From assembly GCF_001882345.1 (NCBI RefSeq), contig NZ_MINL01000001.1, positions 3,481,852-3,545,851 of the forward strand: DNA of 64,000 nt, read 5' to 3'. Both the position numbers and the translations under genes were made by a program. The stretch's first letter is position 1. Each line of letters opens with the position of its first letter. The stretch comes from Halomonas sp. QHL1 (GTDB lineage: Bacteria; Pseudomonadota; Gammaproteobacteria; Pseudomonadales; Halomonadaceae). The notes beneath the pieces were generated by a model, which saw nothing but the letters and a program-made list of their open reading frames with translations, did no database searches and was not told where the DNA came from. Shown one piece after another: positions 45,050-63,273 of this stretch.

Positions 45050-45817
45050 ATGGCCCTTTTTGAGCTGCATAGCCGCAACTTAGCCCAAGAACAGGTGGCC
45101 CATACCCACGACTTCCATCAGCTTATTCTGGCCACTTGTGGTGTTACGGAGCTTTCGATGGAGGGGCAAGGGGAAAGGGTGACCGCACGCCGTGGCTGTC
45201 TGATTCCTTCCTCGCGCCATCACGAATACCAGGGCGATGGCAACAACCGTACCCTAGTGTTGGATATTCCCGTTGCCCAGTTGGCGTCGCTTGAGAAAGG
45301 CAGCGAGATTGAGCGCCTGTTCGATAAGCCGCGCTTTTTCAGCGTGCCTCCCGCGTTAAACCAGCTCACCCATGCCCTGGCGAATCAGCTTGAACAATGT
45401 CCCGCGCTGCAGAATGAAATCGCGATTCTACTGCTGCGCGCGCTGACCATGTATCTGCATGACGCCACTCCCACAGCGGTCGGGCAGTTGGGCCAGCACT
45501 GTATTAGCGAACGCCTCGACCTTGCTCGTTTGGATGTCTGGCTGGATCAGCACCTAGCTGATGAGATCCGCGTTGATCAGTTAGCTTCCCTATGTGCCTT
45601 GAGCCCAGGACACTTCCACAGCTGTTTTCGTGAGCTGACTGGCGTAACGCCGTTGGCCTATGTCCAGCGCAGGCGTTTAGAGCACGCGCGCACGCTAGTT
45701 CGCCATAGCACGCTTAGCCTGGGATATATCGCTATGCTGGTCGGCTTTTGCGATCAAGGGAGTTTTTCCCGCGCCTATAGGCGCTATTTTGAAGTCTCTC
45801 CTTCGTCCGATAGATAG
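45050..45817 (+). CDS. AraC-family transcriptional regulator
   Basis: A 255-residue regulator. An N-terminal cupin-like sensor (HTHDFHQLILATCG, RRGCLIPSSRHHEYQ) covers about 1-130, and the two-HTH AraC domain about 160-255 (LASLCALSPGHFHSCFRELTGVTPLAYVQRRRLEHAR, then IAMLVGFCDQGSFSRAYRRYF). It lies 184 bases before ridA in the same direction, so it is the natural candidate to control the RidA-OCD genes and perhaps the TRAP operon. Inducer unknown. Confidence 0.88.
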   Translation: MALFELHSRNLAQEQVAHTHDFHQLILATCGVTELSMEGQGERVTARRGCLIPSSRHHEYQGDGNNRTLVLDIPVAQLASLEKGSEIERLFDKPRFFSVPPALNQLTHALANQLEQCPALQNEIAILLLRALTMYLHDATPTAVGQLGQHCISERLDLARLDVWLDQHLADEIRVDQLASLCALSPGHFHSCFRELTGVTPLAYVQRRRLEHARTLVRHSTLSLGYIAMLVGFCDQGSFSRAYRRYFEVSPSSDR

Positions 45818-45856
45818 ACCCTCTCTTAGATAGCCACACCTCTCTAGATAGCCGCT
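45811..45856. repeat. Stop-bearing degenerate repeat at the end of the araC-type gene
   Basis: TAGATAG occurs three times (from 45811, 45827 and 45845) with CTCTCT or similar between. The TAG codons at 45815, 45827 and 45845 are all in the gene's own frame. It resembles, in weaker form, the repeat after dctP. Confidence 0.5.
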
Positions 45857-46001
45857 TTCTGTAAATGGCTCCTTCCTGAAAACTGCCTGCATGACTTCCG
45901 GGCAAATCTACCGCAGTGTCGGGCAAGTAATTTGTCGGCGAGCGCACTAGTCTCTGATGATCCCTTTTAAATCAACACAACCTCTTTCAAGGAAAAACAC
46001 C

Positions 46002-46358
46002 ATGGGCGTTACCTATCAAGACAGCAATGCACGTATGAGCCAAGTGGCGATTCACAACGGCACCGTTTACCTCGCAGGCCAGGTTCCCCCTGATGCCACG
46101 GCGGATATGCGTGGCCAAACCGAGCAGGTGCTGGCGCGCATTGATCAACTGCTGGCCCAGGCGGGTACCTCGAAAGAGCACCTGATCTCGGCGCAAATTT
46201 GGGTCACCAGCATGGCGGAGTTCGACCAAATGAACGCTGCTTGGGATGCCTGGGTCGTGCCCGGTCGCCCGCCAGTGCGTGCGGCGCTGGAAGCCCAGCT
46301 CGCCAAGCCCGAGTGGAAAGTTGAGATTATGGTGGTAGCCGCGCTGCCAGAGGCCTGA
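46002..46358 (+). CDS. RidA-family protein
   Basis: A 118-residue trimeric-fold protein. The conserved arginine lies in PPVRAALEAQLA and the acidic residue in KVEIMVVAA; VYLAGQVPPD opens the chain. RidA enzymes hydrolyse reactive enamine/imine intermediates. The ATG at 46002 follows AAGGA at eight bases and is preferred over ATG 45957, which has no family match. The next gene starts two bases after the stop, and it encodes an imine-handling enzyme, so the pair fits one pathway. Confidence 0.88.
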   Translation: MGVTYQDSNARMSQVAIHNGTVYLAGQVPPDATADMRGQTEQVLARIDQLLAQAGTSKEHLISAQIWVTSMAEFDQMNAAWDAWVVPGRPPVRAALEAQLAKPEWKVEIMVVAALPEA

Positions 46359-46359
46359 T

Positions 46360-47301
46360 ATGCGGGTTGTTTCTGCCGAAGAGGTTTCTCGCCACCTGAC
46401 GTGGGGTGGCTTGATCAAGCGGCTACACACGACGTTCGTGAACGGCGTGGAGTCGCCTCCCCGCCACCACCATGCGATGCACCGGCCAGATGGTGAAGCC
46501 ACCATGCTGCTAATGCCCGCTTGGGAAGCGGCGGGCTATATCGGCGTCAAAATGGTCAACGTGTTTCCACAAAACGCCGACCACGGCATCCCAGCGATCT
46601 CTGGGCTTTACTTGCTCAGCGAGGGCAAACATGGCCAGCCGCTGGCCTGTATCGATGGCAGCGAGCTAACCCGACGTCGCACGGCGGCGGCTTCCTCGCT
46701 GGCCGCCCAAGCCTTGGCGATTGATAACGCAGAAACGCTACTGGTGGTGGGCACAGGCAAGTTGGCGCCCATGGTGATCGAGGCCCACGCCAGCGTCCGT
46801 CCCATCAAGCGGGTGCTGATCTGGGGCCGCAACCCCAGCAAATCGGCTGCGATTGCCGATGAGTACGCTGAGCGCTTTGAAACCCACGTGGTGGAAGAGC
46901 TGGCGGATGCCGCGGCAGAGGCGGACATTATTAGCTGCGTAACGCTCTCCAACCAGCCGCTGATTAAAGGTGAGTGGCTAACACCTGGCACCCACTTGGA
47001 TTTGATCGGCGCGTTTCGACCGCAGATGCGCGAAACCGATGCGCTGTGTCTGCGTCGCTCAGAGGTATTTGTGGATACCTACGCCGGAGCCAAGGGCGAG
47101 GCAGGCGACATCCTGCAAGCCATTGAAGAGGGCGAGTTCCAGTTCGACCAGATTCAGGCCGAGCTTGCTGAAGTGCTGGCTGGGACTAAGTCGGGGCGCT
47201 CTGCACCGGAAGCCATCACGCTCTTCAAATCGGTAGGCGCTTCCCTGGAAGATTTAGCGGCTGCGATAGAAGTATGGGAGTCGCTACCCGAACAGCCATG
47301 A
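46360..47301 (+). CDS. Ornithine cyclodeaminase/mu-crystallin family protein
   Basis: A 313-residue NAD(P)-dependent enzyme of the OCD/mu-crystallin family. The dinucleotide motif is VVGTGKLAPMVIEAH (about 129-143), and DGSELTRRRTAAASSLAA (about 97-114) is the substrate-contact region. Members include ornithine cyclodeaminase, alanine dehydrogenase, ketimine reductases (delta1-piperideine- and pyrroline-2-carboxylate) and EutC. Which reaction applies here cannot be read, but the adjacent RidA gene favours an imine substrate. Confidence 0.85.
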   Translation: MRVVSAEEVSRHLTWGGLIKRLHTTFVNGVESPPRHHHAMHRPDGEATMLLMPAWEAAGYIGVKMVNVFPQNADHGIPAISGLYLLSEGKHGQPLACIDGSELTRRRTAAASSLAAQALAIDNAETLLVVGTGKLAPMVIEAHASVRPIKRVLIWGRNPSKSAAIADEYAERFETHVVEELADAAAEADIISCVTLSNQPLIKGEWLTPGTHLDLIGAFRPQMRETDALCLRRSEVFVDTYAGAKGEAGDILQAIEEGEFQFDQIQAELAEVLAGTKSGRSAPEAITLFKSVGASLEDLAAAIEVWESLPEQP

Positions 47302-47323
47302 TTTTTTCAACAGATATGGTTTT

Positions 47324-47329
47324 TATAAT
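47324..47329 (+). promoter_or_regulatory. Possible -10 box of the TRAP operon
   Basis: A perfect TATAAT sits 87 bases before dctP within AT-rich sequence, but no good -35 is found at 16-18 bases. It may need an activator such as the AraC-family protein. Confidence 0.35.
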
Positions 47330-47415
47330 AACAATAGCAACAACGACATCGTCGCCGATCATGTGGCATCGCCAGTCATAACGAAGACCCACTAATAACC
47401 AAAACGAGGTATGTT

Positions 47416-48489
47416 ATGAACGCTAAAAAATCAGTATTTTTCGCCGCCATGGCGGCACTGCCTTTGGCTATCGCCAGCGCCAATGCCCAGGCGCAATCCT
47501 ATGAAATGGTGATCGCTACGCAGTTGCCCGAGGATATGAGTAATAACGAAATCTATCCGGCGCTGGTGCACTTTAAGAACCTGGTGGAGGCTCGAACCGA
47601 CGGGGACCTTGAGGTCACTATCTTCGGCGGCGGTCAGCTGGGCTCCGAGGTAGAAAACGGCTCGGAAGTGCAGGGTGGGCGCACGCTGCAATCAACGATT
47701 ATGTCAGCCGGGGCGATGTCATCGTTTTACCAGGATTATCAGGTCGTCACGGCGCCGTTCCTGTTTACCAATTGGCGTCAGGCGTGGAGTTTCTTTGATA
47801 GTGAATGGTTCGCCGACTTTATGTCCGGCACCGTCGAAGCCGCTGATATGCGTTATTTGGGCACCTTCGACGATGGCGGTGGCTTCGTCGCCTTCACTAA
47901 CAACGTGCGCTTGATCGAGACCGTCGAAGATTTAGAAGGCCTCAATATCCGTACCGAAGAAAACCCCGCCCACGTGGCGATAATGCAATCGTTAGGCGCC
48001 TCTGCCACACCGCTGCCCTGGGGCGAGCTCATCACCGCGCTGGAAACCGGCCTTGCCGATGGCCAGTTCAATGCGCCGGTGCTCAACACCACCTTCAATT
48101 TTGATGCAGTGACCGACTACACCACGCTCACCGGGCATGTGTATAACAGCGCCCCCTGGGTGGTCAGCGAGTCGTGGTACCAATCGTTACCCGAAGAGCA
48201 TCAGCAGGCGCTGGTAAGCTCCGCGCGGGAAGCGATTCAACTGAGCCACGGTATGTCGGGCGCTTTGGCTACCGCAAGTTGGGTGGAGTCCTGTGAACGC
48301 TTTGAAGAGTGCTACCTGATGCCCGACGCCGAGCGTGAGCGGATGGCGGAAATTGCCCGTCCCGCTTGGCAGGAGTGGATCGTCGATGACTTCGGCATGG
48401 ACGAAGCCCGCGTACAGGGGCTGCTTGACGAAGTTGAACGTGTCGGCCAGCAGTTGGCAGAAGACGATTACCGCACTTATGGTCAATAA
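47416..48489 (+). CDS. TRAP transporter substrate-binding protein (DctP family)
   Basis: A 357-residue periplasmic protein with a signal peptide (core VFFAAMAALPLAIASA, likely cleavage after AQA). GGGQLGSEVENGSEVQGGRTLQ and NIRTEENPAHVAIMQSLGASATPLPWGELITALETGLADGQ are DctP signatures; the arginine of the carboxylate-binding site lies in LNIRTEE. TRAP systems usually import carboxylate-bearing solutes with Na+. Its stop is the first of five in-frame TAA codons. dctQ and dctM follow. Confidence 0.93.
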   Translation: MNAKKSVFFAAMAALPLAIASANAQAQSYEMVIATQLPEDMSNNEIYPALVHFKNLVEARTDGDLEVTIFGGGQLGSEVENGSEVQGGRTLQSTIMSAGAMSSFYQDYQVVTAPFLFTNWRQAWSFFDSEWFADFMSGTVEAADMRYLGTFDDGGGFVAFTNNVRLIETVEDLEGLNIRTEENPAHVAIMQSLGASATPLPWGELITALETGLADGQFNAPVLNTTFNFDAVTDYTTLTGHVYNSAPWVVSESWYQSLPEEHQQALVSSAREAIQLSHGMSGALATASWVESCERFEECYLMPDAERERMAEIARPAWQEWIVDDFGMDEARVQGLLDEVERVGQQLAEDDYRTYGQ

Positions 48490-48549
48490 AAGCAGGGCCA
48501 ATAAATGCAGGGCCAATAAAGCCAGGGTCAGTAAAACCGGGGCCAATAA
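48477..48549 (+). repeat. 15-base tandem repeat carrying five in-frame stop codons
   Basis: The end of dctP, GGT CAA TAA, is repeated four more times at exact 15-base steps; TAA codons stand at 48487, 48502, 48517, 48532 and 48547, all in the dctP frame. Four of the copies have Gln and stop as CAA TAA and one as CAG TAA, and third-base changes (GGT/GGC) are largely synonymous. Confidence 0.85.
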
Positions 48550-48566
48550 CGGTTAGCGAACGATAA

Positions 48567-48594
48567 ACGCTGGGGCGATGTGAGGCCCCAGCGT
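48567..48594 (+). other. Stem-loop between dctP and dctQ
   Basis: ACGCTGGGGC and GCCCCAGCGT make a perfect ten-pair stem with an eight-base loop, ending 11 bases before the dctQ ATG and just before its GAGGAA ribosome-binding site. There is no U-tract. Such hairpins often stabilise the binding-protein mRNA and lower expression of the membrane subunits. Confidence 0.7.
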
Positions 48595-48605
48595 GAGGAA
48601 AAACC

Positions 48606-49151
48606 ATGGGCGTTTTAACTCCTTTGCGCCGCGTGAGCGACCTCGTCAATCAGGTGGCCATCGTGGTGTGTGTGGGCTGTATTCTGGCGATGCTGGGCAT
48701 CTCGTTCACTGCGTTTCTCTACAAGCTGATCACCGGTAGCACGCTTAGCTGGACCTACTCACTGGCGCGGCTGTTTCTGCCTTGGATCGGCTTTCTCTCC
48801 ATGACGATTTCGCTGCGCTATGGCGAACATGTCGCCATGACACTGTTGGTTCGCAGCTTGCCCCGCGTGATGGTGCAAGTCGCTGCCGGGCTCTGCCTGG
48901 CGGTGATTGGTCTGTTTGCACTGATGCTGACGTGGTACGGCTGGGATTACTTCGCCAGTGCCACCCAGGTCTACATGGTCTCCGATCAAATCCGCATTCC
49001 CAGCAAGGTGACCGCTATCGTTGTGCCTCTCAGTGGCGTCCTCATGCTGCTGCACCTGGTGCATGGCTTTGCCCTGCTGGAGCATTTCATCGCTGATCAG
49101 GACGTGATTGGCGAACTCATCGACACCAGTGACGGGGAGCACCGCTCATGA
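48606..49151 (+). CDS. TRAP transporter small membrane subunit (DctQ)
   Basis: A 181-residue protein with four hydrophobic segments (from about residues 15, 49, 85 and 130). YSLARLFLPWIGFLSMTISLRYGEHVAMTLLV matches the DctQ pattern. It partners the large DctM subunit, whose start overlaps its stop by four bases. Confidence 0.9.
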   Translation: MGVLTPLRRVSDLVNQVAIVVCVGCILAMLGISFTAFLYKLITGSTLSWTYSLARLFLPWIGFLSMTISLRYGEHVAMTLLVRSLPRVMVQVAAGLCLAVIGLFALMLTWYGWDYFASATQVYMVSDQIRIPSKVTAIVVPLSGVLMLLHLVHGFALLEHFIADQDVIGELIDTSDGEHRS

Positions 49152-50422
49152 CCCCTGCAATTATTGCGTTTGTCGTGCTGCTGTTTATCGGTGCACCGGT
49201 GGCGGTGGTGATGGCCATGTCCGGGTTGGCGGGTGGCTTTGCCATCGGCGGCGAGCGCATGCTCGGCATCATTGCCGATCGCATGTTCTCCGGCGTCTCC
49301 GGCTTTCTACTGATTGCCGTGCCCTACTTTATTTTCACCGCAGAGCTGATGAACCAGGGCGGGCTGACCCATAAATTGATCGCGTTCAACAATGCACTGT
49401 TCGGTCGGGTGCGCGGGTCACTCTCCCATGTGAATATCTCGGTCTCGGTGTTCTTTGCGGGTCTCACCGGCGCGGCGGTCACCGATACCGTCGCCATCGG
49501 CAAAATCATGATTCCCGAGATGAAAAAGCAGGGCTACGATGCCGAATACGCCGCTGCGGTTACCGCCTGTTCTTCCATTATCGGGCCGATTATTCCCCCA
49601 AGCGTGGTGATGGTGGTGTATGCCACGCTGCTGCGGGATATTTCGGTGATTGACCTGTTTGCCGGTGGCATTATTCCCGGCCTGTTGATGGCGCTGGCGC
49701 TACTGGGCGTCAGCTTCTTCCTGGCCTGGAAGCGCAACTACCCTAAACAGGCACCTACACCCTTTAAGGCGGCCATCATCGCACTGTTAGTCGCGCTGCC
49801 TGCGATGGTGGTGCCGCTGATTATCCTCGGGGGGATTCTCTCGGGGCTCACCACGATTACCGAAGCCTCGGGCTTTGCGGCGGTTTACGCCATTGTGATT
49901 GGTGTGGTCTTCTACCGTAATCTTACCTGGCGCAAAATCTGGGATTCACTGGTGACCACGGTGCGCTTCTCCGGGGTAGTATTTTTTCTGCTGGCGACAT
50001 CGGCGGTACTGGGCTGGTTCGTCACTCGCTCGGGCATCGCCAGGGATGCGGCCAGTATGATCACCACCTTTAGCGATGTGGCCTTTGTGCAATTGATGCT
50101 GGTGTGTCTGCTACTCTTGGTGATTGGCACGGTGATGGACGTGCTGCCTGCACTGGTGGTCATTGCGCCGGTTCTGGTGCCAGCGATGATCCAGCTGGGC
50201 TTTGATCCGCTGCACTTCGCCATTTTGATGATCGTGGTGCTCAATATCTCCAACGTGACACCGCCAGTGGGTATGACGCTGATGACCGCCGCGCGAATAG
50301 CCGAGGTGCCCTACGAACGAGCGATCGTGGCCTCGCTGCCGTTTTACGTGTCGTTTTTAGTAGTGATTGTGCTCCTGGCTGCGTTCCCAGCACTCTCCAC
50401 CTGGATTCCGTCACTGCTGTAA
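49148..50422 (+). CDS. TRAP transporter large membrane subunit (DctM)
   Basis: A 424-residue permease with about 12 helices. GRVRGSLSHVNISVSVFFAGLTGAAVTDT and SSIIGPIIPPSVVMVVYATL are the family motifs. It forms the Na+-coupled transport path with DctP and DctQ. Halomonas ectoine carrier TeaABC is of this class, but here no TeaD-type stress protein follows, and the neighbours are catabolic. Confidence 0.94.
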   Translation: MTPAIIAFVVLLFIGAPVAVVMAMSGLAGGFAIGGERMLGIIADRMFSGVSGFLLIAVPYFIFTAELMNQGGLTHKLIAFNNALFGRVRGSLSHVNISVSVFFAGLTGAAVTDTVAIGKIMIPEMKKQGYDAEYAAAVTACSSIIGPIIPPSVVMVVYATLLRDISVIDLFAGGIIPGLLMALALLGVSFFLAWKRNYPKQAPTPFKAAIIALLVALPAMVVPLIILGGILSGLTTITEASGFAAVYAIVIGVVFYRNLTWRKIWDSLVTTVRFSGVVFFLLATSAVLGWFVTRSGIARDAASMITTFSDVAFVQLMLVCLLLLVIGTVMDVLPALVVIAPVLVPAMIQLGFDPLHFAILMIVVLNISNVTPPVGMTLMTAARIAEVPYERAIVASLPFYVSFLVVIVLLAAFPALSTWIPSLL

Positions 50423-50443
50423 TTTAGCTAAGGACTGCGACCC

Positions 50444-51475
50444 ATGAAGTGTTTTTATCACCCTGACCAGACGTTGCATGCGCCGCCGACCTTCCTGCTG
50501 CGCGGCCAGCCTGTGCCTTCGCCAGAAGGTCCGGTACGCGCCGAGCTGCTTACCCAGGGGCTGGCAACGGCGGGGCTGACCCTGACCGCGCCTACTGAGG
50601 CGGATTCGCCAACGCTGCGCAAGCGCTTAGAGCAGATTCATACGCCGCGCTACCTAACGTTCCTGGACACCATTTACGCCCGCTGGCAGGCGCTGCCCAA
50701 TGCGGCGGAATTTGTTGCACCCAATATTCACCCTTGCGGTGGTGGTTACCACTACCCGCGCCACCCGATTGGGCAAGCGGGCTGGCATTTGCACGATATG
50801 GCCTGCCCGCTAAGTGCTACCAGCTTTCAAGGCGCGCTGGCCTCAGCCGCTAGCGCTGAAGCGGCGGCAGAAGAGGTGCTTAATGGCGCGCCAACGGCCT
50901 ACGCGCTGTGCCGCCCGCCGGGTCACCATGCCGGGCCGGAGCGTGCCGGGGGCTTTTGCCTGCTGAACAATTCCGCGCTGGCCGCCACGGTGCTGCGCGA
51001 ACGCTTTGCTAAGGTGGCGATCATCGATGTGGATCTGCACCACGGCAACGGCACCCAGGATATTTTCTATCACCGCAGCGATGTCTGGACGGGCTCGCTG
51101 CACGCCGACCCTAGTGATTTCTATCCGTTTTTTTGGGGCGGCGCTGATGAAGAGGGCGACGAAGAGGGCGTAGGTGCTAACGTTAATCTGCCCTTGCCGG
51201 TAGGCAGCGACGGGGAGGTCTATCTGGACGCCCTGGCAGTGTTAATTGATCACCTGCAGCGCTACGAGCCCGATGCCGTGGTGGTGGCGCTAGGCTTAGA
51301 CGCCCACAAAGATGACCCGCTCGCGGGGCTTACGGTGGAAACCGAGGCGTTTATCGAGGTGGGTAAACGCCTGGCGGCGCTTGCGCTACCTATGGTGATT
51401 GTTCAAGAGGGCGGCTACCCCACAGAGCACCTAAGCGCCAACCTGACCGCGTTTATGCACGGTTTTACGGCATGA
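50444..51475 (+). CDS. HDAC-like amidohydrolase, acetylpolyamine-deacetylase type (first of three)
   Basis: A 343-residue arginase-fold deacetylase. Active-site residues are intact: H161 and H162 (RPPGHHAG), zinc ligands D197 and H199 (DVDLHHGNGT) and D286 (LGLDAHKDDP), and Y325 (QEGGYP). Bacterial relatives remove acetyl groups from polyamines or other amines. It begins 21 bases after dctM and its stop overlaps the next deacetylase start, so it belongs to the TRAP operon. The third paralogue at 62135 has the same residue numbering and length. Confidence 0.9.
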   Translation: MKCFYHPDQTLHAPPTFLLRGQPVPSPEGPVRAELLTQGLATAGLTLTAPTEADSPTLRKRLEQIHTPRYLTFLDTIYARWQALPNAAEFVAPNIHPCGGGYHYPRHPIGQAGWHLHDMACPLSATSFQGALASAASAEAAAEEVLNGAPTAYALCRPPGHHAGPERAGGFCLLNNSALAATVLRERFAKVAIIDVDLHHGNGTQDIFYHRSDVWTGSLHADPSDFYPFFWGGADEEGDEEGVGANVNLPLPVGSDGEVYLDALAVLIDHLQRYEPDAVVVALGLDAHKDDPLAGLTVETEAFIEVGKRLAALALPMVIVQEGGYPTEHLSANLTAFMHGFTA

Positions 51476-52578
51476 GCAGAACCGGTTTTTACTGGCACGA
51501 GCGCTGCTTTTGGCATGATTTAGGCACGATTGGGGTATTTTCCGCGCCGGGTGAGTTTTTACAGCCCCAGGCCGCCTCGGAAAGCCCGGAGAGCAAGCGA
51601 CGCCTGAAAAACATTCTTGAAGTCAGTGGGCTGGTTGACGAGCTGAACGTGGTGAAGCCACCTGCCGCGTCGCTAGATGACCTGCTGCGTTTTCACACCC
51701 CTCGTTACCTGGACGAACTGCAGGCAGGGGATAAAACGCGGGGCGGCAACGGTGGCGACTGCGCACCTTACATGCCTGGCAGTTGGGCGGCAGCCACGCA
51801 GTCCGCAGGGCTGGCCATTGCCGCCGTTGAAGCCGTGGCGCTGGGCGAGGTGAGCAATGCCTACGCCCTATGCCGCCCGCCGGGCCACCATGCTGAAACC
51901 GATCAAGGCCGTGGGTTCTGCCTGCTGGGCAATATCCCCGTGGCGGTGATGCGCGCCCGGGCCTTGGGGCAGGTGAACCGGGTGGCGATACTCGATTGGG
52001 ATGTCCACCACGGCAACGGTCAGCAGGCGGCGTTTTATGACGAGCCCAATGTATTGACCGTCTCACTCCATCAGGCGGCTAACTACCCGCTGGAAACCGG
52101 CAGTTTTGACGAACAGGGCGAAGGCGTAGGGCTGGGTGCCAATCTCAACCTACCGCTGCCCCCTGGCTGTGGCCTTGGTGCCTACGCGTACGCCATGGAA
52201 AAACTGGTGCTGCCCGCGCTGGAGGCCTTTAACCCCGAGCTAATCGTGGTGGCCTGTGGTTACGACGCCTGCGCTAAGGATCCCTTAGGAAAAATGCTGC
52301 TCAATAGCCAAGCCTTCGCCACCATGACCGCCCAGCTTAAAGCACTGGCCGAGCGCTGCTGCGATGGCAAACTGGTGTTCATTCACGAAGGCGGCTATTC
52401 GGAAGGTTATGTGCCGTTATGCGGCCACGCGGTGATCCAAACCCTGGCGGGCAGTGCCATTGCCGTGCCCGACCCGCAAAACGATGAAATTGCCGCTTGG
52501 GGCTATCAGGCCCTGCAACCGCACCAGGAGCTGTTAATCGACGACTGGTGCCAACAGTGGGAGCAACGCAAACAATGA
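51472..52578 (+). CDS. Class II HDAC-like amidohydrolase (second of three)
   Basis: A 368-residue protein similar to bacterial HDAH enzymes. H139 and H140 (RPPGHHAE), D177 and H179 (DWDVHHGNGQ), D265 (CGYDACAKDP) and Y309 (HEGGYS) complete the Zn active site. It is distinct from the other two, with a longer N-terminus (RCFWHDLGTIGVF) and an extra C-terminal segment after residue 330. Natural substrate unknown. It overlaps its neighbours by four bases on both sides, which argues for coupled expression and partly different specificity from the first enzyme. Confidence 0.9.
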   Translation: MSRTGFYWHERCFWHDLGTIGVFSAPGEFLQPQAASESPESKRRLKNILEVSGLVDELNVVKPPAASLDDLLRFHTPRYLDELQAGDKTRGGNGGDCAPYMPGSWAAATQSAGLAIAAVEAVALGEVSNAYALCRPPGHHAETDQGRGFCLLGNIPVAVMRARALGQVNRVAILDWDVHHGNGQQAAFYDEPNVLTVSLHQAANYPLETGSFDEQGEGVGLGANLNLPLPPGCGLGAYAYAMEKLVLPALEAFNPELIVVACGYDACAKDPLGKMLLNSQAFATMTAQLKALAERCCDGKLVFIHEGGYSEGYVPLCGHAVIQTLAGSAIAVPDPQNDEIAAWGYQALQPHQELLIDDWCQQWEQRKQ

Positions 52579-53531
52579 CACCGCTTTATGACCGCGATGG
52601 CTGGATTTGGCACGACGGTGAATGGCTGGAGTGGCGCGAGGCCAAGGTGCATGTCTTCACCCATACGCTGCATTACGGCATGGGCTGTTTTGAGGGAGTG
52701 CGCGCCTACGCTGGCCCCAGCGGCACGCATCTGTTTCGTGCTGCTGAACATACCCGCCGCTTGGCAGAAAGCGCCCATTCGCTGGATATGCCGCTGCCGT
52801 TTAGTGAAGCGGAGTTGATCAATGCCCAGCGCGAGTGTCTGACCAAAAACGGCCTGAGCAATGCCTATCTGAAACCTACCGTGTTTTTTGGTGCAGAAGG
52901 CTTAGGGCTACGCGCCCAGGGGCTAACGACCCATGTGATGGTCGCCGCCTGGGATTTAGGCCCCTACATTTCACCCCAGGCCGCGACCCACGGCTTGCGC
53001 GCGCTGACGTCGTCTTGGGCGCGCCACCACGTTAATATCAGCCTGTGTCGGGCGAAAACTAACGGCCACTACGTCAACTCGATACTGGCGCTGAATACGG
53101 CGATCAAAGCCGGGTTCGATGAAACTATCATGCTCGACCCGGAAGGCTATGTAGCCGAGGCCTCGGCGGCCAACGTCTTTTTGCTCCGTGATGGCGTGCT
53201 GCACACCCCGGAAGTAACCTCGTGTTTGCAAGGCATCACCCGGGATAGCGTGATTCAGCTGGCGCAAAAAGTGCTGGGCATAGAAGTGCGCGAGCGGCGT
53301 ATAACCCGCGACGAGTTATACACCGCCGATGAGGCTTTCTTAACCGGCACCGCCGCCGAAATACTCCCGCTTCGCGAGCTGGATGGTCGCCGCATTGGTG
53401 GGCGTGCTGGCGCACCTCCGGTCAACGAGGCGATCAAAGCTGATAGCGTCACGGCTCAACTGCAGAGACTATATCGTCAGGCGGCGCGGGGAGAGTTGGA
53501 TGATTTTCACCACTGGTTAACCCCGGCTTAA
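52575..53531 (+). CDS. Class IV aminotransferase, branched-chain type
   Basis: A 318-residue PLP enzyme of the BCAT/D-alanine transaminase fold. K161 (CRAKTNGHYVNS) is the likely PLP lysine; GMGCFEGVRAY and YVAEASAANVFLL are BCAT-like. The start is at 52575, overlapping the preceding stop by four bases. IlvE is the textbook relative, but as the last gene of a transport-deacetylase operon this copy more likely transaminates a deacylated product. Confidence 0.88.
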   Translation: MTPLYDRDGWIWHDGEWLEWREAKVHVFTHTLHYGMGCFEGVRAYAGPSGTHLFRAAEHTRRLAESAHSLDMPLPFSEAELINAQRECLTKNGLSNAYLKPTVFFGAEGLGLRAQGLTTHVMVAAWDLGPYISPQAATHGLRALTSSWARHHVNISLCRAKTNGHYVNSILALNTAIKAGFDETIMLDPEGYVAEASAANVFLLRDGVLHTPEVTSCLQGITRDSVIQLAQKVLGIEVRERRITRDELYTADEAFLTGTAAEILPLRELDGRRIGGRAGAPPVNEAIKADSVTAQLQRLYRQAARGELDDFHHWLTPA

Positions 53532-54646: not shown

Positions 54647-54677
54647 GGTAAGTCCTAAAACAGTGTTAATGAGTAAC

Positions 54678-56069
54678 TTAAAACGCTTCTTGAAGCACTT
54701 TACCGCGGTTCAATAGATTGAGTGGGTCTAGCGCTTGCTTGAGCGTATGCATCAGTTCGACTTCAGCGCTGGAGCGGCAGGTATAGAGCCAGGGCCGCTT
54801 CTCCAGGCCAATGCCGTGTTCGGCGGAAACCGAGCCGCCAAGTGCCGCCAGCGGCTGATAGACCATGGCTTCCACTTCACGGCGCACCTCGACATCGGCG
54901 CTCCCCGCGTTGACGGAAATATGCAGGTTGCCATCGCCCAGGTGACCAAAGACCACCAGGCGAGCCTCGGGCCAGCGCTGCTTCAGTTGTGCTTCCAGGG
55001 CATCGGTGTAGCGCTGCATATCGGCAATCGGCAGGCTGACATCAAAAGTGAACAGCGGTGCCAAGCCTTTGATTAACCCTTCGATATCTTCACGTATCGC
55101 CCACAGTCCATCGCGCTGGGTAGTCGACTGCGCAATCACCGCATCCACAATCAGCTCGCTCTCTAACGCGCTTTCTAACGCCTCGCTGAACTGAGTGGCA
55201 TTGCGCTCGGCGTCGCTGCCCAGGGAGTCAATGATCACATAAAACGGATGCTCGGTGGCAATCGGCGGGGTGTGGCGGCCCAGGGCTTCAGTGAGCAACC
55301 GGTAGTGGTTTTGCCACATCACCTCAAAAGCACCCAGGCCTCCCCCGAGCGCTTTGCCCATATGACTGAGCAGCCCGGTTAACGCCTCAAACGAAGGGCA
55401 GGCCACCATCGCGGTTTGCTCGCTGGGGGTAGGTGGCTGCAGGCGCAGCACTGCGCGGGTCACAATCCCCAGGGTGCCTTCGCTGCCGATAAACAGCTGC
55501 TTTAAATCGAAACCGGCGTTGTTTTTCAACATGCGGTTCATGGAGCTGACTACCCGGCCATCGGCCATTACCGCTTCCAGGCCAAGCACCTGCTGGCGCA
55601 TCATGCCGTAGCGGATGACTCGAACACCGCCGGCGTTGGTGGCGATATTGCCGCCAATGGTGCAACTGCCTCGCGCGCCCAGATCTAGCGGAAACTGCAG
55701 CCCAACCTCTTTAGCCGCCTCCTGAACCTGCTGCAGTGGTGTCCCGGCCTGCACGGAGAGTGTGCCGCCCACTTGATCAATCTCTTCGATCGCGCTCATG
55801 CGTTCCAGGGAAATCACCAACTCATCCGGGCTAGCTTCTGCACCGTGCACCAACCCGGTTAGCCCACCGTGGGTGACCACCGGCTGCTGCACCTGATGAC
55901 AAGCCTGCATGACCGCAGCGACTTGCTCGGTATCCGCCGGGCGCACAATTGCCCCGGCTTGGCAGGGGGCGCCGGTCATCCAATCCACGCGTCGGCTGTG
56001 CACATCGTCGCCGGTCAATACATGGGCCGGGCCCACAATAGCGCGCAGCGCCTCCAGGGTTATCTGCAT
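54678..56069 (-). CDS. FAD-linked D-2-hydroxyacid dehydrogenase (GlcD/D2HGDH type)
   Basis: A 463-residue flavoprotein. The PCMH FAD-binding domain spans about 35-215 (VTHGGLTGLVHGAEASPDELVISLERM, GGNIATNAGGVRVIRYG); the C-terminal domain holds HLGDGNLHISV and SAEHGIGLEKR, where metal and substrate carboxylate bind. It oxidises a D-2-hydroxy acid to the 2-oxo acid. The ATG at 56069 follows AAAGGA by six bases and is preferred over 56090. It lies 29 bases after the ABC ATPase gene, so it joins import to oxidation. Confidence 0.9.
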   Translation of the reverse strand: MQITLEALRAIVGPAHVLTGDDVHSRRVDWMTGAPCQAGAIVRPADTEQVAAVMQACHQVQQPVVTHGGLTGLVHGAEASPDELVISLERMSAIEEIDQVGGTLSVQAGTPLQQVQEAAKEVGLQFPLDLGARGSCTIGGNIATNAGGVRVIRYGMMRQQVLGLEAVMADGRVVSSMNRMLKNNAGFDLKQLFIGSEGTLGIVTRAVLRLQPPTPSEQTAMVACPSFEALTGLLSHMGKALGGGLGAFEVMWQNHYRLLTEALGRHTPPIATEHPFYVIIDSLGSDAERNATQFSEALESALESELIVDAVIAQSTTQRDGLWAIREDIEGLIKGLAPLFTFDVSLPIADMQRYTDALEAQLKQRWPEARLVVFGHLGDGNLHISVNAGSADVEVRREVEAMVYQPLAALGGSVSAEHGIGLEKRPWLYTCRSSAEVELMHTLKQALDPLNLLNRGKVLQEAF

Positions 56070-56098
56070 TGGGTATCCTTTTTTTACCATTAAATAAT

Positions 56099-57739: not shown

Positions 57740-57748
57740 ATAAAGTCC

Positions 57749-58582
57749 TTAGCGCTCGCGTGATAGTTTGGGGTTCAAAGCGTCGTCTAAACCTTCACCT
57801 ACCAGGTTTAACGCCAGTACGGTGAGCAGAATCGCCACCCCTGGGAAGAAACTCAGCCACCACGCCTGACGAATCACCGTGCGCGCTGCGCCGATCATAT
57901 AGCCCCAGGACATCACATTAGGGTCGCCCAGGCCGAGAAACGACAGCGCCGACTCCAGCAAAATCGCGGTGGCCACCATTAGCGATGCCAGCACGATAAT
58001 CGGCGACAGCGTATTGGGCAGAATCTGACGCAGAATGATCGTGCTGTTGGACTGACCAACCAAGCGCGCGGCTTCGACATACTCGCGGTTGCGCAGCGAC
58101 ATAAATTCAGCGCGCACTAAGCGGGCCACCGGCGGCCAGCTGACGATCGCAATCGCCAGCACAATCGAGGTGATGCTGGGCTGCATGATGGCCACCAGTA
58201 CAATCGCCAGCGCGAAGTTGGGGATGGTCTGGAAGAACTCGGTAAAGCGCATCAATACATCGTCTATGATTCCGCCGTAGTAGCCAGCAATGGCCCCCAA
58301 GGGAACGCCGATCAGCAGCGCCACGCTGGTGGATACCAGCCCGATCAACAGCGATACCCAGGCGCCGTGCATTAAGCCTGAGGCCACATTGCGGCCCATG
58401 GTGTCGGTGCCCAGGGGAAAGCCATCCTGCGAGAGCGGCGGCAAAAAGGGTCGCTGCACCATGCGCCAGGGCGATTCAGGAAACAGCAGTGGAGCGAGTA
58501 TCGCCATGGCGATAATCAGCAGCAGGATAATCAGCCCGACGAGGGCGCCACGGTTTTGCGCGAAGCGTGCGAAAAAGCTCAT
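57749..58582 (-). CDS. Dipeptide-type ABC transporter permease (DppC)
   Basis: A 277-residue permease with about six helices. FPLGTDTMGRNVASGLMHGAWVSLLIGLVSTSVALLIGVPLGAIAGYYGG is the family start, and EYVEAARLVGQSNSTIILRQILPN is the EAA coupling loop. Ends by overlapping dppB in tight series (four bases). Confidence 0.95.
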   Translation of the reverse strand: MSFFARFAQNRGALVGLIILLLIIAMAILAPLLFPESPWRMVQRPFLPPLSQDGFPLGTDTMGRNVASGLMHGAWVSLLIGLVSTSVALLIGVPLGAIAGYYGGIIDDVLMRFTEFFQTIPNFALAIVLVAIMQPSITSIVLAIAIVSWPPVARLVRAEFMSLRNREYVEAARLVGQSNSTIILRQILPNTLSPIIVLASLMVATAILLESALSFLGLGDPNVMSWGYMIGAARTVIRQAWWLSFFPGVAILLTVLALNLVGEGLDDALNPKLSRER

Positions 58583-59559: not shown

Positions 59560-59600
59560 AAGTAGTTTCCTGACTAATACCTTCAAGACATAGCTGGAAA

Positions 59601-59626
59601 ACCCAGGTAGCTCGCGCTACCTGGGT
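59601..59626 (-). other. Stem-loop between SBP and permease genes
   Basis: ACCCAGGTAGC and GCTACCTGGGT form an 11-pair perfect stem with a four-base loop, ten bases past the SBP stop; TTTTCC follows on the minus strand. It can act as a partial terminator, keeping permease expression below that of the SBP. Confidence 0.75.
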
Positions 59627-59635
59627 GGCTTGGGT

Positions 59636-61192: not shown

Positions 61193-61293
61193 GTTTCCTG
61201 CTCCTCGGTTATTAGCACGTAATCGGTTTACGTAGTCGTTAGGCGAGCGAGGCGTGTCAGACCCTGTTGTGATGTTTGTTGGGGGTCTGTTTT

Positions 61294-61353
61294 AAAACTA
61301 GCATTTTCAAAAGCTGGCACTTTGAAACCAGTCTCTTTGAAAGTAGCAGCACG
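61294..61353. repeat. Degenerate 15-base tandem repeat in the SBP-gntR gap
   Basis: Four exact 15-base steps, each unit close to RAAANNAGCNNNTTT (units start at 61294, 61309, 61324 and 61339). TTTGAAA occurs at 61321 and 61336. It lies between divergent genes, upstream of the likely gntR operator. Confidence 0.6.
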
Positions 61354-61360
61354 CGGTAAA

Positions 61361-61390
61361 ACTGTCGACAGTCGGCAATCGTTCGTCGAC
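61361..61390. promoter_or_regulatory. Paired GTCGAC palindromes, candidate GntR operator
   Basis: ACTGTCGACAGT at 61361-61372 is a perfect 12-base palindrome. A second GTCGAC at 61385-61390 lies exactly 21 bases, two helical turns, downstream. Both are within 60 bases of the gntR start and between the divergent genes. A further inverted repeat, ACGTAA/TTACGT, lies at 61217-61233 in the SBP leader. Confidence 0.5.
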
Positions 61391-61422
61391 AAGGAGGTAT
61401 TTTTCGTCATACTGGGAAGAAC

Positions 61423-62172
61423 ATGTTATACCCACGAGTGAATGCGATGGCCTTACCAACGGCGGCTCCCAGGCCCTTTATTCAGCAGCAAAATCTCGTT
61501 GAACAAGTGGCCGACTACTTAACCCAAGCGATTATTCAGCAACACTTTTTACCCGGCGAGCGGCTTTCTGAAGTGCAGCTCTCACGCGACTTGGGCGTTA
61601 GCCGCGCGCCGGTGCGTGAGGCCGCTCGTTTACTGGAAAGCCGCGGTTTATTAATCTCAAAACCCCGTCGGGGCTTCTTTGTAAGAGCGTTGAATGCCGT
61701 TGAACTCGAGGACGTATTTGATCTAAGGCTGTGCCTCGAGCGCCATGCTATCCACCGCCTTGTCGAGCGCTATACCCCCGATGCCCAGCGCGCGCTCAAG
61801 CAGCAGGTAGAGGTGCTATGTGAGGCGGCAGCCAGTAACGATGGCACCCGCCGCATTGAAGAGGATTTGCAGTTTCACCGGTTAATGCTGCACTACGCGG
61901 GTAACGAGCGGCTGTTGCGTGCCTTTGACGACCTGACCCATGAGCTGCGCCTCTGCATCACCCTCATTACCAAAACCCATGAAGCCCCCGACACGATCGC
62001 CACCAGCCACTTTAAGCTGCTTGACGCGCTGGATAGCGGCAGCCCTGATGCCTGCCGTGAGGCGATTGACTACCACATAGGCGTTGCACGCGATTTCGTG
62101 GTGAAGGGTGTGGGCGAAACCGGAGATAGTTCTGATGAAGATAGTGCCGATGAAGACGTTCTTCCACGCTGA
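61423..62172 (+). CDS. GntR-family regulator, FCD (FadR-like) subfamily
   Basis: A 249-residue regulator. The winged HTH covers about residues 22-92 (ERLSEVQLSRDLGVSRAPVREAARLLESRGLL), and the all-helical FCD sensor about 95-225, with metal-type histidines (EEDLQFHRLML, TSHFKLLDAL, DYHIGVARDFV). FCD proteins usually sense small carboxylates with a bound metal. It is divergent from the ABC operon and overlaps the third deacetylase gene, so it likely controls both. The C-terminus is a Ser/Asp/Glu-rich tail. Confidence 0.92.
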   Translation: MLYPRVNAMALPTAAPRPFIQQQNLVEQVADYLTQAIIQQHFLPGERLSEVQLSRDLGVSRAPVREAARLLESRGLLISKPRRGFFVRALNAVELEDVFDLRLCLERHAIHRLVERYTPDAQRALKQQVEVLCEAAASNDGTRRIEEDLQFHRLMLHYAGNERLLRAFDDLTHELRLCITLITKTHEAPDTIATSHFKLLDALDSGSPDACREAIDYHIGVARDFVVKGVGETGDSSDEDSADEDVLPR

Positions 62173-63172
62173 CCAACTGCTTCATCAGCCGCAAACCTAC
62201 TTCTCCCGGGGTAAAATGCGCACACCCCAGGAAGTGCCGGAGCGCGCGACTCAACTGCTGGCGGCGGCCAATCAGCTAGGGTTTGATACCCAAGCACCTG
62301 CGGATTATGGGGTAGCGCCGCTAAGAGCGGTGCATTCGCTGGCTTATCTGCGCTTTCTGGAAAGTGCCCATCGGCGCTGGCATGCCCTTGGGGAAGATTG
62401 GGGTGAAGAGGTTATCTCCAATATTTTCGTACGTTCGCCCAACGCCCTGCGCGGCATCTTGGCAGAAGCAGGGCGCTACCTGGCTGATGGTAGCGCGCCT
62501 GTGGGCCAGCACACATGGCAGGCCGCCTATTGGGCTGCGCAGAGTGCGGTCGCCGGAGCCGAGGCCTTATTAGCCGGTGATCGGTTCGCCTATGCACTAT
62601 CGCGCCCGCCGGGCCACCACGCAGGTATCGATTCCGCTGGTGGCTTCTGCTTTCTGAATAATGCCGCCATTGCCGCGCAGCATCTCACTTCGCGCTATCC
62701 GCGTATCGTGGTGCTCGACCCCGATATGCATCACGGGCAGGGCATTCAGGAAATTTTCTACCAGCGCGACGATGTCATGTATATCTCGATCCATGGCGAT
62801 ACCACCAACTTCTACCCCGCAGTAACCGGCTTTGAAGACGAGCGCGGGCAGGGCGCTGGGCTGGGCTATAACCTCAACCTGCCGATGCCCCATGGATCAG
62901 AGGAGTCGGTGTTCTTTGACCGCCTGGAGCAAGCCTGCCAGACCATTCGCCTGTTCGAGCCTGACGCCATCGTGCTGGCGCTGGGGTTTGATATCTATGA
63001 GCGCGACCCCCAGGCCAAGGTGGCTGTTTCCACGACGGGGTTTGGTGAACTGGGCCGCCGGGTCGCGGGCCTGAACGTACCCACGCTGGTGGTGCAGGAA
63101 GGCGGCTACTACTTGGAAGGGTTGGAGGCCAACGCGGTGAGTTTCTTTGAGGGACTGCTGGGTAAGACGTAA
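62135..63172 (+). CDS. HDAC-like amidohydrolase, acetylpolyamine-deacetylase type (third)
   Basis: A 345-residue paralogue of the first deacetylase. H161/H162 (RPPGHHAG), D197/H199 (DPDMHHGQGI), D286 (LGFDIYERDP) and Y325 (QEGGYYLE) are in the same positions, so the active site should work. The ATG at 62135 has GGAG nine bases upstream; ATG 62150 would remove five residues and cannot be excluded. The first 38 bases lie inside gntR. Pocket-lining residues after the histidines differ from the first enzyme (IDSAGGF against PERAGGF), which suggests another substrate range. Confidence 0.88.
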   Translation: MKIVPMKTFFHADQLLHQPQTYFSRGKMRTPQEVPERATQLLAAANQLGFDTQAPADYGVAPLRAVHSLAYLRFLESAHRRWHALGEDWGEEVISNIFVRSPNALRGILAEAGRYLADGSAPVGQHTWQAAYWAAQSAVAGAEALLAGDRFAYALSRPPGHHAGIDSAGGFCFLNNAAIAAQHLTSRYPRIVVLDPDMHHGQGIQEIFYQRDDVMYISIHGDTTNFYPAVTGFEDERGQGAGLGYNLNLPMPHGSEESVFFDRLEQACQTIRLFEPDAIVLALGFDIYERDPQAKVAVSTTGFGELGRRVAGLNVPTLVVQEGGYYLEGLEANAVSFFEGLLGKT

Positions 63173-63239: not shown

Positions 63240-63263
63240 ATAGTCATTGAAATAGTCATTGAA
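63240..63263 (+). repeat. Exact 12-base tandem duplication before the SMC-like gene
   Basis: ATAGTCATTGAA is present twice in direct succession, ending at the AAGGA ribosome-binding site of the next gene. Confidence 0.75.
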
Positions 63264-63273
63264 AGGACACGGC

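What the first reader, a model, noticed from the sequence alone, without database searches (positions are those of the whole stretch)
45050..63172. Two transport systems with three HDAC-like deacetylases: candidate uncharacterised acyl-amine catabolic system
Three arginase-fold deacetylases with complete Zn sites lie within 13 kb. Two share an operon with a TRAP transporter and a class IV aminotransferase; the third lies beside a GntR regulator that is divergent to a dipeptide-type ABC transporter, a FAD hydroxyacid dehydrogenase and a second aminotransferase. RidA and an OCD-like reductase handle imines. The parts fit import of N-acyl amines or amino acids, deacylation, transamination and oxidation. 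The family functions are established knowledge; the pathway is my inference. I know of no described system of this composition.
Basis: partly seen in the sequence, partly recalled or inferred. Interest (0 to 1): 0.72.

Follow-up and report, generated by a model that had tools for sequence, protein, structure and literature searches.

The report
Two adjacent acetyl-amino-acid catabolic gene modules
A salt-loving bacterium carries, side by side, two separately controlled sets of genes that appear to import acetylated amino-acid-like compounds, strip the acetyl group with relatives of histone deacetylases, and feed the rest into ordinary metabolism; the exact nutrients are not yet known.

Summary
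In detail: three HDAC-fold deacetylases lie within 12.7 kb, with a TRAP and a dipeptide-type ABC system. It looks like two modules, not one system. Module 1 (AraC, RidA, OCD, TRAP, H1, H2, class IV aminotransferase) recurs in Halomonadaceae: of 101 genomes 35 have H1 and OCD, 1 H1 only, 6 OCD only; in 34 of the 35 they lie within 4.1 kb. Module 2 (ABC, FAD dehydrogenase, HisC-like aminotransferase, GntR, H3) has its own operator: TGTCGACA stands at 22 of 30 GntR homologues and at 0 of 206 module-1 gene starts. In seven loci an ArgE/DapE deacylase stands beside GntR, where H3 stands here. H1 and H3 lack the PIS motif of characterised acetylpolyamine amidohydrolases. The OCD scores as piperideine-/pyrroline-2-carboxylate reductase; in three relatives it sits beside pipecolate oxidase and dehydrogenase. 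Best reading of module 1: an omega-N-acetylated basic amino acid (N6-acetyllysine or N5-acetylornithine) is deaminated and deacetylated, cyclises and is reduced to pipecolate or proline. The window genome lacks AmaA/AmaB hits but has two PutA. Substrates are inferred.

The parts
45050..45817 (+). AraC-family regulator, module 1
   Evidence: PF12833/PF00165; 57-97% homologues head most H1 clusters; a 55% homologue heads an NhaC/ArcD-DadA-like-OCD cluster in two genomes without H1
45957..46358 (+). RidA-family (imine/enamine deaminase family), module 1
   Evidence: PF01042, 90 bits; in 24 of 28 named H1 loci
46360..47301 (+). OCD-family reductase, delta1-pyrroline/piperideine-2-carboxylate reductase by score
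   Evidence: NF004793 411.5 bits, cut-off 322; only PF02423 match in the genome; orthologues beside AmaA/AmaB in three genomes without H1
47416..48489 (+). TRAP solute-binding protein DctP
   Evidence: PF03480 180 bits; Arg179 invariant in 14 aligned DctP
48606..49151 (+). TRAP small permease DctQ
   Evidence: PF04290
49148..50422 (+). TRAP large permease DctM
   Evidence: TIGR00786 363 bits, cut-off 268; 4-base overlap with DctQ
50444..51475 (+). H1: HDAC-fold amidohydrolase, ApaH-like, without the PIS motif (PLA)
   Evidence: PF00850 244 bits; PDB 3men 282 bits
51472..52578 (+). H2: HDAC-fold amidohydrolase of the bacterial HdaH kind
   Evidence: PF00850 284 bits; PDB 9glb 363 bits and P. 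aeruginosa-type HDAH 354 bits
52575..53531 (+). AT4: class IV aminotransferase, IlvE-like
   Evidence: NF005146 377 bits, cut-off 279; a separate ilvE type II gene lies elsewhere in the genome
53528..54646 (-). AT12: HisC-like class I/II aminotransferase, module 2
   Evidence: PF00155 153 bits; below every NCBIfam cut-off shown
54678..56090 (-). FAD-linked D-2-hydroxyacid dehydrogenase family (GlcD/D2HGDH-like)
   Evidence: PF02913 161 bits, PF01565 127 bits; PDB 3pm9 315 bits, human-type D2HGDH 6lpn 303 bits
56099..57739 (-). ABC ATPase, fused DppD-DppF type
   Evidence: NF008453 518 bits, cut-off 408
57749..58582 (-). ABC permease DppC type
   Evidence: PF00528, PF12911
58579..59586 (-). ABC permease DppB type
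   Evidence: PF00528, PF19300
59636..61192 (-). ABC solute-binding protein, SBP_bac_5
   Evidence: PF00496 307 bits; model pLDDT 79.5 matches peptide, nickel-chelate and opine binders
61363..61370 (.). predicted GntR operator TGTCGACA (in CTGTCGACAG 61362-61371)
   Evidence: only copy in the window; at 22 of 30 GntR homologues, 4 of 753 other gene starts
61423..62172 (+). GntR/FCD regulator, module 2
   Evidence: PF07729, PF00392
62150..63172 (+). H3: HDAC-fold amidohydrolase, ApaH-like, without the PIS motif (PQA)
   Evidence: PF00850 236 bits; PDB 3men 527 bits

Best explanation
Two neighbouring, separately regulated small-molecule catabolic modules share the use of HDAC-fold enzymes as N-deacetylases. 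Module 1: a TRAP transporter brings in an omega-N-acetylated basic amino acid, N6-acetyllysine or N5-acetylornithine. The class IV aminotransferase (helped or replaced in some relatives by a DadA-like dehydrogenase, with RidA clearing imines) makes the 2-oxo acid; H1, probably with H2, removes the acetyl group; the free omega-amino 2-oxo acid closes on itself to delta1-piperideine- or pyrroline-2-carboxylate; the OCD reductase makes L-pipecolate or L-proline. In the window's own genome proline burned by PutA is the better supported end, because AmaA/AmaB were not found. Module 2: a dipeptide-type ABC system brings in another N-acetylated compound, H3 deacetylates it, AT12 and the FAD dehydrogenase handle the resulting amino, oxo or hydroxy acid, under GntR. 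Shown by sequence: the genes, their linkage, the reductase assignment by score and by context, the separate operator, the deacylase swap. Inferred: every substrate, the order of the steps, the division of labour between H1 and H2.
For: Operon-like spacing on one strand from RidA to AT4, with overlaps DctQ/DctM, H1/H2, H2/AT4. H1 and OCD: 35 of 101 genomes have both, 34 of 35 within 4.1 kb, Fisher p = 9e-20 (positions copied). Of 28 named H1 loci: OCD 24, RidA 24, H2 23, AT4 22, AraC 17, TRAP 17; L011 adds one each to H2, AT4 and AraC, seen but lost to a filter for ambiguous bases. OCD above the curated cut-off for Pip2C/Pyr2C reductase. OCD orthologues without H1: beside AmaA (699 bits, cut-off 600) and AmaB (808, cut-off 730) in G085, G064, G025 and behind an NhaC/ArcD-type carrier and a DadA-like oxidase in G040, G021. 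AmaA over cut-off in 21 of 41 OCD+ and 6 of 60 OCD- genomes. DadA-like gene beside H2/AT4 in L021 and L027, same-size gene in L123. Genome has a second, housekeeping-type BCAT and two PutA. PIS absent from all 34 H1 and 7 H3-type rows, E106 replaced by V/I or L, and an Arg at lid position 20 in 34 of 34 and 7 of 7 against 0 of 3 characterised and 3 of 35 other PIS rows. RPPGHH and EGGY in all three, which PMC11532494 (sections 13 and 16 read) ties to acetyl rather than longer acyl groups. ArgE/DapE beside GntR in seven loci. D-lysine route with D-amino acid dehydrogenase, Pip2C reductase and downstream genes: PMC6034422, passages only.
Against: The window genome has no AmaA match at E <= 1e-60 and no AmaB match at E <= 1e-170. 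H1 stands without OCD in G011, L019, L023 and L026 and without H2, RidA and AT4 in L024; L024 has a PotABCD-like transporter, which would also suit acetylpolyamines. AmaA is only mildly enriched with H1 itself: 16 of 36 against 11 of 65, p = 0.0045, relatedness not corrected. Position 106 also varies among the three characterised enzymes (E, H, D) and 117 too, so the loss of acids there is weak evidence. AT4 scores as an ordinary branched-chain aminotransferase. TRAP is missing from 11 of 28 named loci. Why two unlike deacetylases are needed is unexplained. No enzyme was assayed.
Confidence: 0.5

Rival explanations
1. Acetylpolyamine catabolism: H1 and H3 are ordinary acetylpolyamine amidohydrolases, as their nearest named structures suggest, and the clusters import and deacetylate acetylated di- and polyamines.
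For: Nearest solved chains are named acetylpolyamine amidohydrolases; PotABCD-like transporters beside HDAC genes in L024 and Bosea L095; bacterial cluster 4 enzymes are polyamine deacetylases (PMC11532494 section 9).
Against: The three characterised enzymes and the PIS motif fall in one deep clade (28 PIS and 4 other rows), H1 and H3 in the other (52 non-PIS rows and 1 PIS row), split supported 99/97. Partner enzymes (OCD reductase, AT4) act on 2-amino or 2-oxo acids. The TRAP binding protein keeps the Arg that in this family usually holds a carboxylate (the rule is recalled). The genome has a further ApaH-like gene at 3086490.
Confidence: 0.17
2. One combined system, as first proposed: both transporters and all three deacetylases serve one pathway.
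For: FAD orthologues (65% or more) occur in 20 of 101 genomes, 19 of which have H1, and 11 lie within 16 kb of H1; AT12 can stay beside H1/AT4 or H3 without the ABC genes (L009, L017, L125, L155).
Against: Different regulators and no GntR operator at 206 module-1 gene starts; 8 of 19 genomes with both have them apart; module 2 travels with H3 and GhrA but without H1-OCD in other genera (L120, L121, L148, L149, L151, L153).
Confidence: 0.12
3. The deacetylases are regulators that deacetylate proteins, such as acetyl-CoA synthetase, and only sit beside transport genes.
For: H2 is close to HdaH enzymes that deacetylate lysine in peptides (PMC11532494 section 13).
Against: Fixed operons with catabolic enzymes and transporters; exchange of H3 for ArgE/DapE, a small-molecule deacylase family.
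Confidence: 0.07
4. Another amide class: acetylated diaminobutyrate from ectoine or hydroxyectoine, or a hydroxylysine-like compound for module 2.
For: Close relatives of the module-2 ABC and H3 stand with a second HDAC, an APH-type kinase and a class III phospholyase-like enzyme (L120, L121); one HDAC cluster lies next to eutB/eutC (L094). The hydroxylysine reading of kinase plus lyase is recalled.
Against: Neither kinase nor lyase is in the window; a diaminobutyrate oxo acid would not give the five- or six-ring imine that the OCD family reduces (established chemistry).
Confidence: 0.14

Closest known systems
D-lysine catabolism through delta1-piperideine-2-carboxylate and L-pipecolate (Pseudomonas putida)
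   Same: Pip2C/Pyr2C reductase step; D-amino acid dehydrogenase and AmaA/AmaB contexts of the OCD orthologues in relatives (PMC6034422 passages)
   Different: Here deacetylases and a class IV aminotransferase take the place of the D-lysine entry steps; reductase is of the OCD, not the MLD2, family; AmaA/AmaB not found in the window genome
Bacterial acetylpolyamine amidohydrolases (MrApaH, PsApaH, MsAPAH; cluster 4 of Graf et al. 2024)
   Same: Fold, Zn site, RPPGHH and EGGY motifs of H1 and H3
   Different: No PIS motif, aliphatic residue at 106, Arg at lid position 20, other deep clade
Bacterial HdaH amidohydrolases (P. aeruginosa HDAH, KpHdaH, dimethoate and propanil hydrolases)
   Same: H2 matches over its length, 354-363 bits
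   Different: H2 is encoded in a transport-catabolic operon; activity unknown
Acetyl-lysine degradation through 6-acetamido-2-oxohexanoate and 5-acetamidopentanoate (textbook map, recalled)
   Same: Transamination of N6-acetyllysine
   Different: Deacetylation before decarboxylation, giving the cyclic imine, is proposed here
GntR-ArgE/DapE-ABC clusters in Halomonadaceae and alphaproteobacteria
   Same: Same ABC family, GntR and operator as module 2
   Different: M20-type deacylase in place of, or next to, the HDAC-fold one; no function established for them in any call

Membership tests
Acetylpolyamine amidohydrolase (H1, H3) | Arginase-deacetylase family match with complete Zn site and catalytic His/Tyr | tested here: met
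   PF00850; residues
Acetylpolyamine amidohydrolase (H1, H3) | PIS motif at 290-292 shared by the characterised bacterial enzymes (PMC11532494 section 16) | tested here: not met
   PLA in 34 of 34 H1 rows; PQA or PQS in 7 of 7 H3-type rows
Acetylpolyamine amidohydrolase (H1, H3) | Groups with characterised enzymes in a tree | tested here: not met
   Opposite sides of a 99/97 branch, 85 rows kept of 116, midpoint root
Acetylpolyamine amidohydrolase (H1, H3) | Deacetylates acetylpolyamines | not testable with these tools
   No assay
HdaH of sub-cluster 1b (H2) | Full-length similarity, RPPGHH and EGGY | tested here: met
   sequence; the authors' own clustering was not repeated
Delta1-pyrroline/piperideine-2-carboxylate reductase, OCD family | Curated cut-off of the family model | tested here: met
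   NF004793 411.5 against 322 bits; LhpI model NF045512 145.7 against 400 is not met
Delta1-pyrroline/piperideine-2-carboxylate reductase, OCD family | Context with pipecolate or D-amino acid enzymes | tested here: met
   In relatives, not in the window: AmaA/AmaB in 3 and DadA-like in 2 of the 6 OCD-only genomes; G013 has a DAO-family gene beside it
Complete D-lysine/pipecolate pathway in the window genome | AmaA and AmaB present | tested here: not met
   No match at the limits used
Branched-chain aminotransferase (AT4) | Curated cut-offs of IlvE models | tested here: met
   377 against 279 and 349 against 246 bits; substrate in vivo unknown, second BCAT present
Dipeptide/oligopeptide ABC importer | SBP_bac_5, two permeases, fused ATPases | tested here: met
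   ligand not testable

The most novel reading that the evidence does not exclude
The non-PIS half of the ApaH-like family is a widespread set of small-molecule N-acetyl-amino-acid deacetylases, each placed by its operon at a different acetylated substrate: acetyl-lysine or acetyl-ornithine feeding the pipecolate or proline branch (H1), the ABC-imported compound of module 2 (H3), and N-acetylated intermediates of beta-lysine breakdown in rhizobia and relatives (transaminase, keto-acid cleavage enzyme, acetyltransferase, HDAC). This would make HDAC-fold enzymes a regular tool of amino-acid catabolism, and would give genes to deacetylase steps known only from old biochemistry.
Probability: 0.35. 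Interest if true: 0.7.

Novelty: new variant of a known kind. Interest (0 to 1): 0.55.

Why it matters
Bacterial HDAC-fold proteins are named for polyamines or histones, and most have no assigned role. Here linkage, motifs and a tree give one sub-group a testable metabolic job, with named substrates and products. If true it adds an entry to the lysine/ornithine pathways through acetylated forms, explains why halophiles keep several such enzymes, and warns that 'acetylpolyamine amidohydrolase' is the wrong name for many of them. The GntR operator makes the second module's regulon searchable.

Tried and rejected
An Arg near position 103 of H1 as a carboxylate anchor: rejected, it is R in 27 of 34 H1 rows only. 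N-(2-hydroxyacyl) amides (lactoyl, pantoyl) as the substrate of module 2, suggested by the recurring hydroxyacid dehydrogenases (FAD, GhrA, PanE): set aside, because RPPGHH/EGGY are tied to acetyl groups in PMC11532494, but not excluded. Ligand of the TRAP protein by structure: the model was poor (pLDDT 54) and was not searched. Ligand of SBP5 by structure: its top rows bind peptides, nickel chelates, glutathione and opines, so no ligand class follows. AmaA/AmaB as the end of the pathway in the window genome: not found.

Paper searches: (ten, the cap). None listed a paper on an HDAC-OCD-TRAP cluster; searches returned no paper. Most subscription journals are not in that library, so a description there is not excluded. 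PMC11532494: abstract, sections 6, 9, 13, 16 and found passages. PMC6034422, PMC4113996, PMC9007349, PMC3187862: found passages only. All others: listing only. Recalled, from no call: the beta-lysine biochemistry, the hydroxylysine kinase/phospholyase reading, the carboxylate-binding Arg of TRAP binding proteins, the organism of 3men, the acetyl-lysine map.

Limits: genome positions in the script were copied by hand. The H2 count in the 101 genomes (30 of 36 within 5 kb) comes from a capped list. Neighbour names come from a small database of window and plasmid proteins, so unlisted families were not seen. The motif TGTCGACA was found in part of the loci on which it was counted; the 30 comprise 24 like the window GntR (22 hits; misses L022, cut by the contig end, and L128, where the open frame begins far upstream and the motif is present) and 6 like the Chelatococcus GntR (0 hits). 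Fisher tests ignore relatedness.


Full report
Observation. The window is from a Halomonas/Vreelandella relative: the best named loci are 94-96% identical in H1. From 45957 to 53531 eight genes on the + strand (RidA, OCD, DctP, DctQ, DctM, H1, H2, AT4) follow each other with gaps of at most 116 bases and three overlaps, behind an AraC gene. From 61192 down to 53528 six genes on the - strand (SBP5, PermB, PermC, fused ATPase, FAD, AT12) form a second unit, divergent from GntR-H3. Six PF00850 proteins are in the genome, three of them here.

Conservation of module 1. In a sample of 101 Halomonadaceae genomes, H1 orthologues (69% identity or more; the next hits are 50% or less) occur in 36 and OCD orthologues (68% or more; next 54%) in 41. 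Thirty-five have both, one only H1 (G011), six only OCD, 59 neither; 34 of the 35 have them 0.9 to 4.1 kb apart, G051 on different contigs. An H2-type hit lies within 5 kb of H1 in 30 of the 36, from a capped list. Among 28 named loci with H1 at 60% or more, OCD is present in 24, RidA in 24, H2 in 23, AT4 in 22, AraC in 17 and a TRAP permease in 17; L011 adds one to H2, AT4 and AraC. L019 and L023 have H1 alone, L026 lacks OCD, L024 has only AraC, a PotABCD-like transporter, H1 and OCD. The TRAP can be another TRAP (27% DctP in L021, L127, L128) or absent (L012, L014, L041, L126). So the stable core is the deacetylase and the reductase, and the importer is exchangeable.

What the reductase does. 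The OCD protein passes the curated cut-off for bifunctional pyrroline-/piperideine-2-carboxylate reductase (411.5 against 322 bits). It is the only PF02423 protein in the genome. The six genomes with OCD but no H1 are informative. In G085, G064 and G025 it stands beside L-pipecolate oxidase AmaA and piperidine-6-carboxylate dehydrogenase AmaB, both over cut-off. In G040 and G021 an AraC 55% identical to the window's precedes an NhaC/ArcD-type carrier, a DadA-like oxidase and OCD. In G013 a DAO-family gene is adjacent. Over the sample, AmaA over cut-off is in 21 of 41 OCD+ and 6 of 60 OCD- genomes, and in 16 of 36 H1+ and 11 of 65 H1-. In Pseudomonas putida D-lysine goes through Pip2C and its reductase to L-pipecolate (PMC6034422, passages), and OCD-family Pyr2C reductases are established (PMC4113996, passages). 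This ties module 1 to the cyclic imine of lysine or ornithine. Against: the window genome itself has neither AmaA nor AmaB at the limits used. It has two PutA proteins over cut-off, so proline from Pyr2C is a usable end there.

What the deacetylases are. H2 matches HdaH enzymes. H1 and H3 match acetylpolyamine amidohydrolases, H3 at 527 bits to 3men. In an alignment of 116 sequences the three characterised enzymes have PIS at 290-292; H1 rows have PLA in 34 of 34, H3-type rows PQA or PQS in 7 of 7. An Arg at lid position 20 is in 34 of 34 and 7 of 7, in 13 of 37 other non-PIS, 3 of 35 other PIS and 0 of 3 characterised rows. Position 106 is V or I in H1 and L in H3, but it varies among the characterised enzymes too. 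In a tree of 85 of these rows the PIS side holds 28 PIS and 4 other (Chloroflexota) rows, the other side 52 non-PIS rows and 1 PIS row, with H1 and H3 in the second, support 99/97. RPPGHH and EGGY in H1-H3 suggest acetyl rather than longer acyl groups (PMC11532494). H1 and H3 are thus not shown to be, and by motif and tree do not look like, standard polyamine enzymes.

Module 2 is separate. SBP5-PermB-PermC-ATPase-FAD-AT12 with GntR recurs in other Halomonadaceae genera (L127, L128, L137-L142; L140 shows no AT12). The gene beside GntR is H3 in the window, L126 and L154, but an ArgE/DapE deacylase in L021, L127, L128, L139, L140, L141 and L142. In L120, L121, L148, L149, L151 and L153 the same ABC comes with GhrA and H3 and without FAD and AT12. 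Such swaps say that H3 is an amide hydrolase of a small molecule and that a 2-hydroxyacid/2-oxoacid step follows. The palindrome TGTCGACA lies between SBP5 and GntR at 61363, its only copy in the window. It is at 22 of 30 GntR homologues, 4 of 753 other gene starts and 0 of 206 module-1 gene starts. The FAD orthologue is in 20 of 101 genomes, 19 with H1, 11 of them within 16 kb. The modules are therefore often neighbours but not one regulon.

Wider family. On plasmids, relatives of H1/H3 stand with the same ABC type and ArgE/DapE or Zn-hydrolase genes, with class III aminotransferase, keto-acid cleavage enzyme and GNAT (without GNAT), and with an APH-type kinase and class III enzyme. Others have no such neighbours (for instance). 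H2-type relatives stand in mixed surroundings, once behind a branched-chain amino acid ABC, others without a clear theme.

Mechanism proposed and status. Import (TRAP), 2-oxo acid formation (AT4, RidA), deacetylation (H1, H2), spontaneous ring closure, reduction (OCD) to L-pipecolate or L-proline. Gene presence, linkage and reductase class are shown; substrates and order are inferred. The order could be reversed (deacetylation first). I put 0.5 on this reading of module 1 and keep polyamines, other acetylated diamino acids, a combined system and protein deacetylation as rivals.

Novelty. No paper on such a cluster appeared in ten searches of an open-access library. The parts are known; the combination is a new variant of the known lysine/ornithine-to-cyclic-imino-acid routes, with HDAC-fold enzymes as entry.

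Noticed in passing
L087:7192-11026 (Phyllobacterium plasmid NZ_CP017942.1); also L032, L034, L097: Class III aminotransferase, keto-acid cleavage enzyme (NF053538 533 bits, cut-off 430), GNAT and an HDAC 53% identical to H1 in one row (L087; the others have part of it). The set fits the old biochemistry of beta-lysine breakdown through N6-acetyl-beta-lysine and a 4-acetamidobutyryl-CoA deacetylase (recalled), whose genes I found in no search.
   Followed up: partly
L120, L121 (unnamed Halomonadaceae genomes); L094, L095, L099 (plasmids): HDAC beside an APH-type kinase and a class III aminotransferase-fold enzyme, which resembles hydroxylysine kinase plus phospholyase (recalled).
   Followed up: partly
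window 61363-61370 and the GntR loci: TGTCGACA as a likely operator of this GntR group, from Halomonadaceae to alphaproteobacteria; the Chelatococcus-like GntR group lacks it.
   Followed up: yes
G000:C1:1225850-1228993 and 1230845-1233856: Two PutA-type proteins close together in the own genome (1620 and 1405 bits).
   Followed up: no
G000:C1:2414052 and 2739186: Two HglS (PF07063) genes in the own genome although no AmaA or AmaB was found; the source of 2-oxoadipate is unclear.
   Followed up: no
window 63259-63999: Start of a DUF3584 (PF12128) ATPase-like gene, cut by the window end.
   Followed up: no
L090:8613-11032 (Paracoccus plasmid NZ_CP040764.1): FAD-binding oxidoreductase overlapping an HDAC gene by four bases, a second FAD-HDAC pair; whether it is close to the window's FAD protein was not tested.
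   Followed up: no
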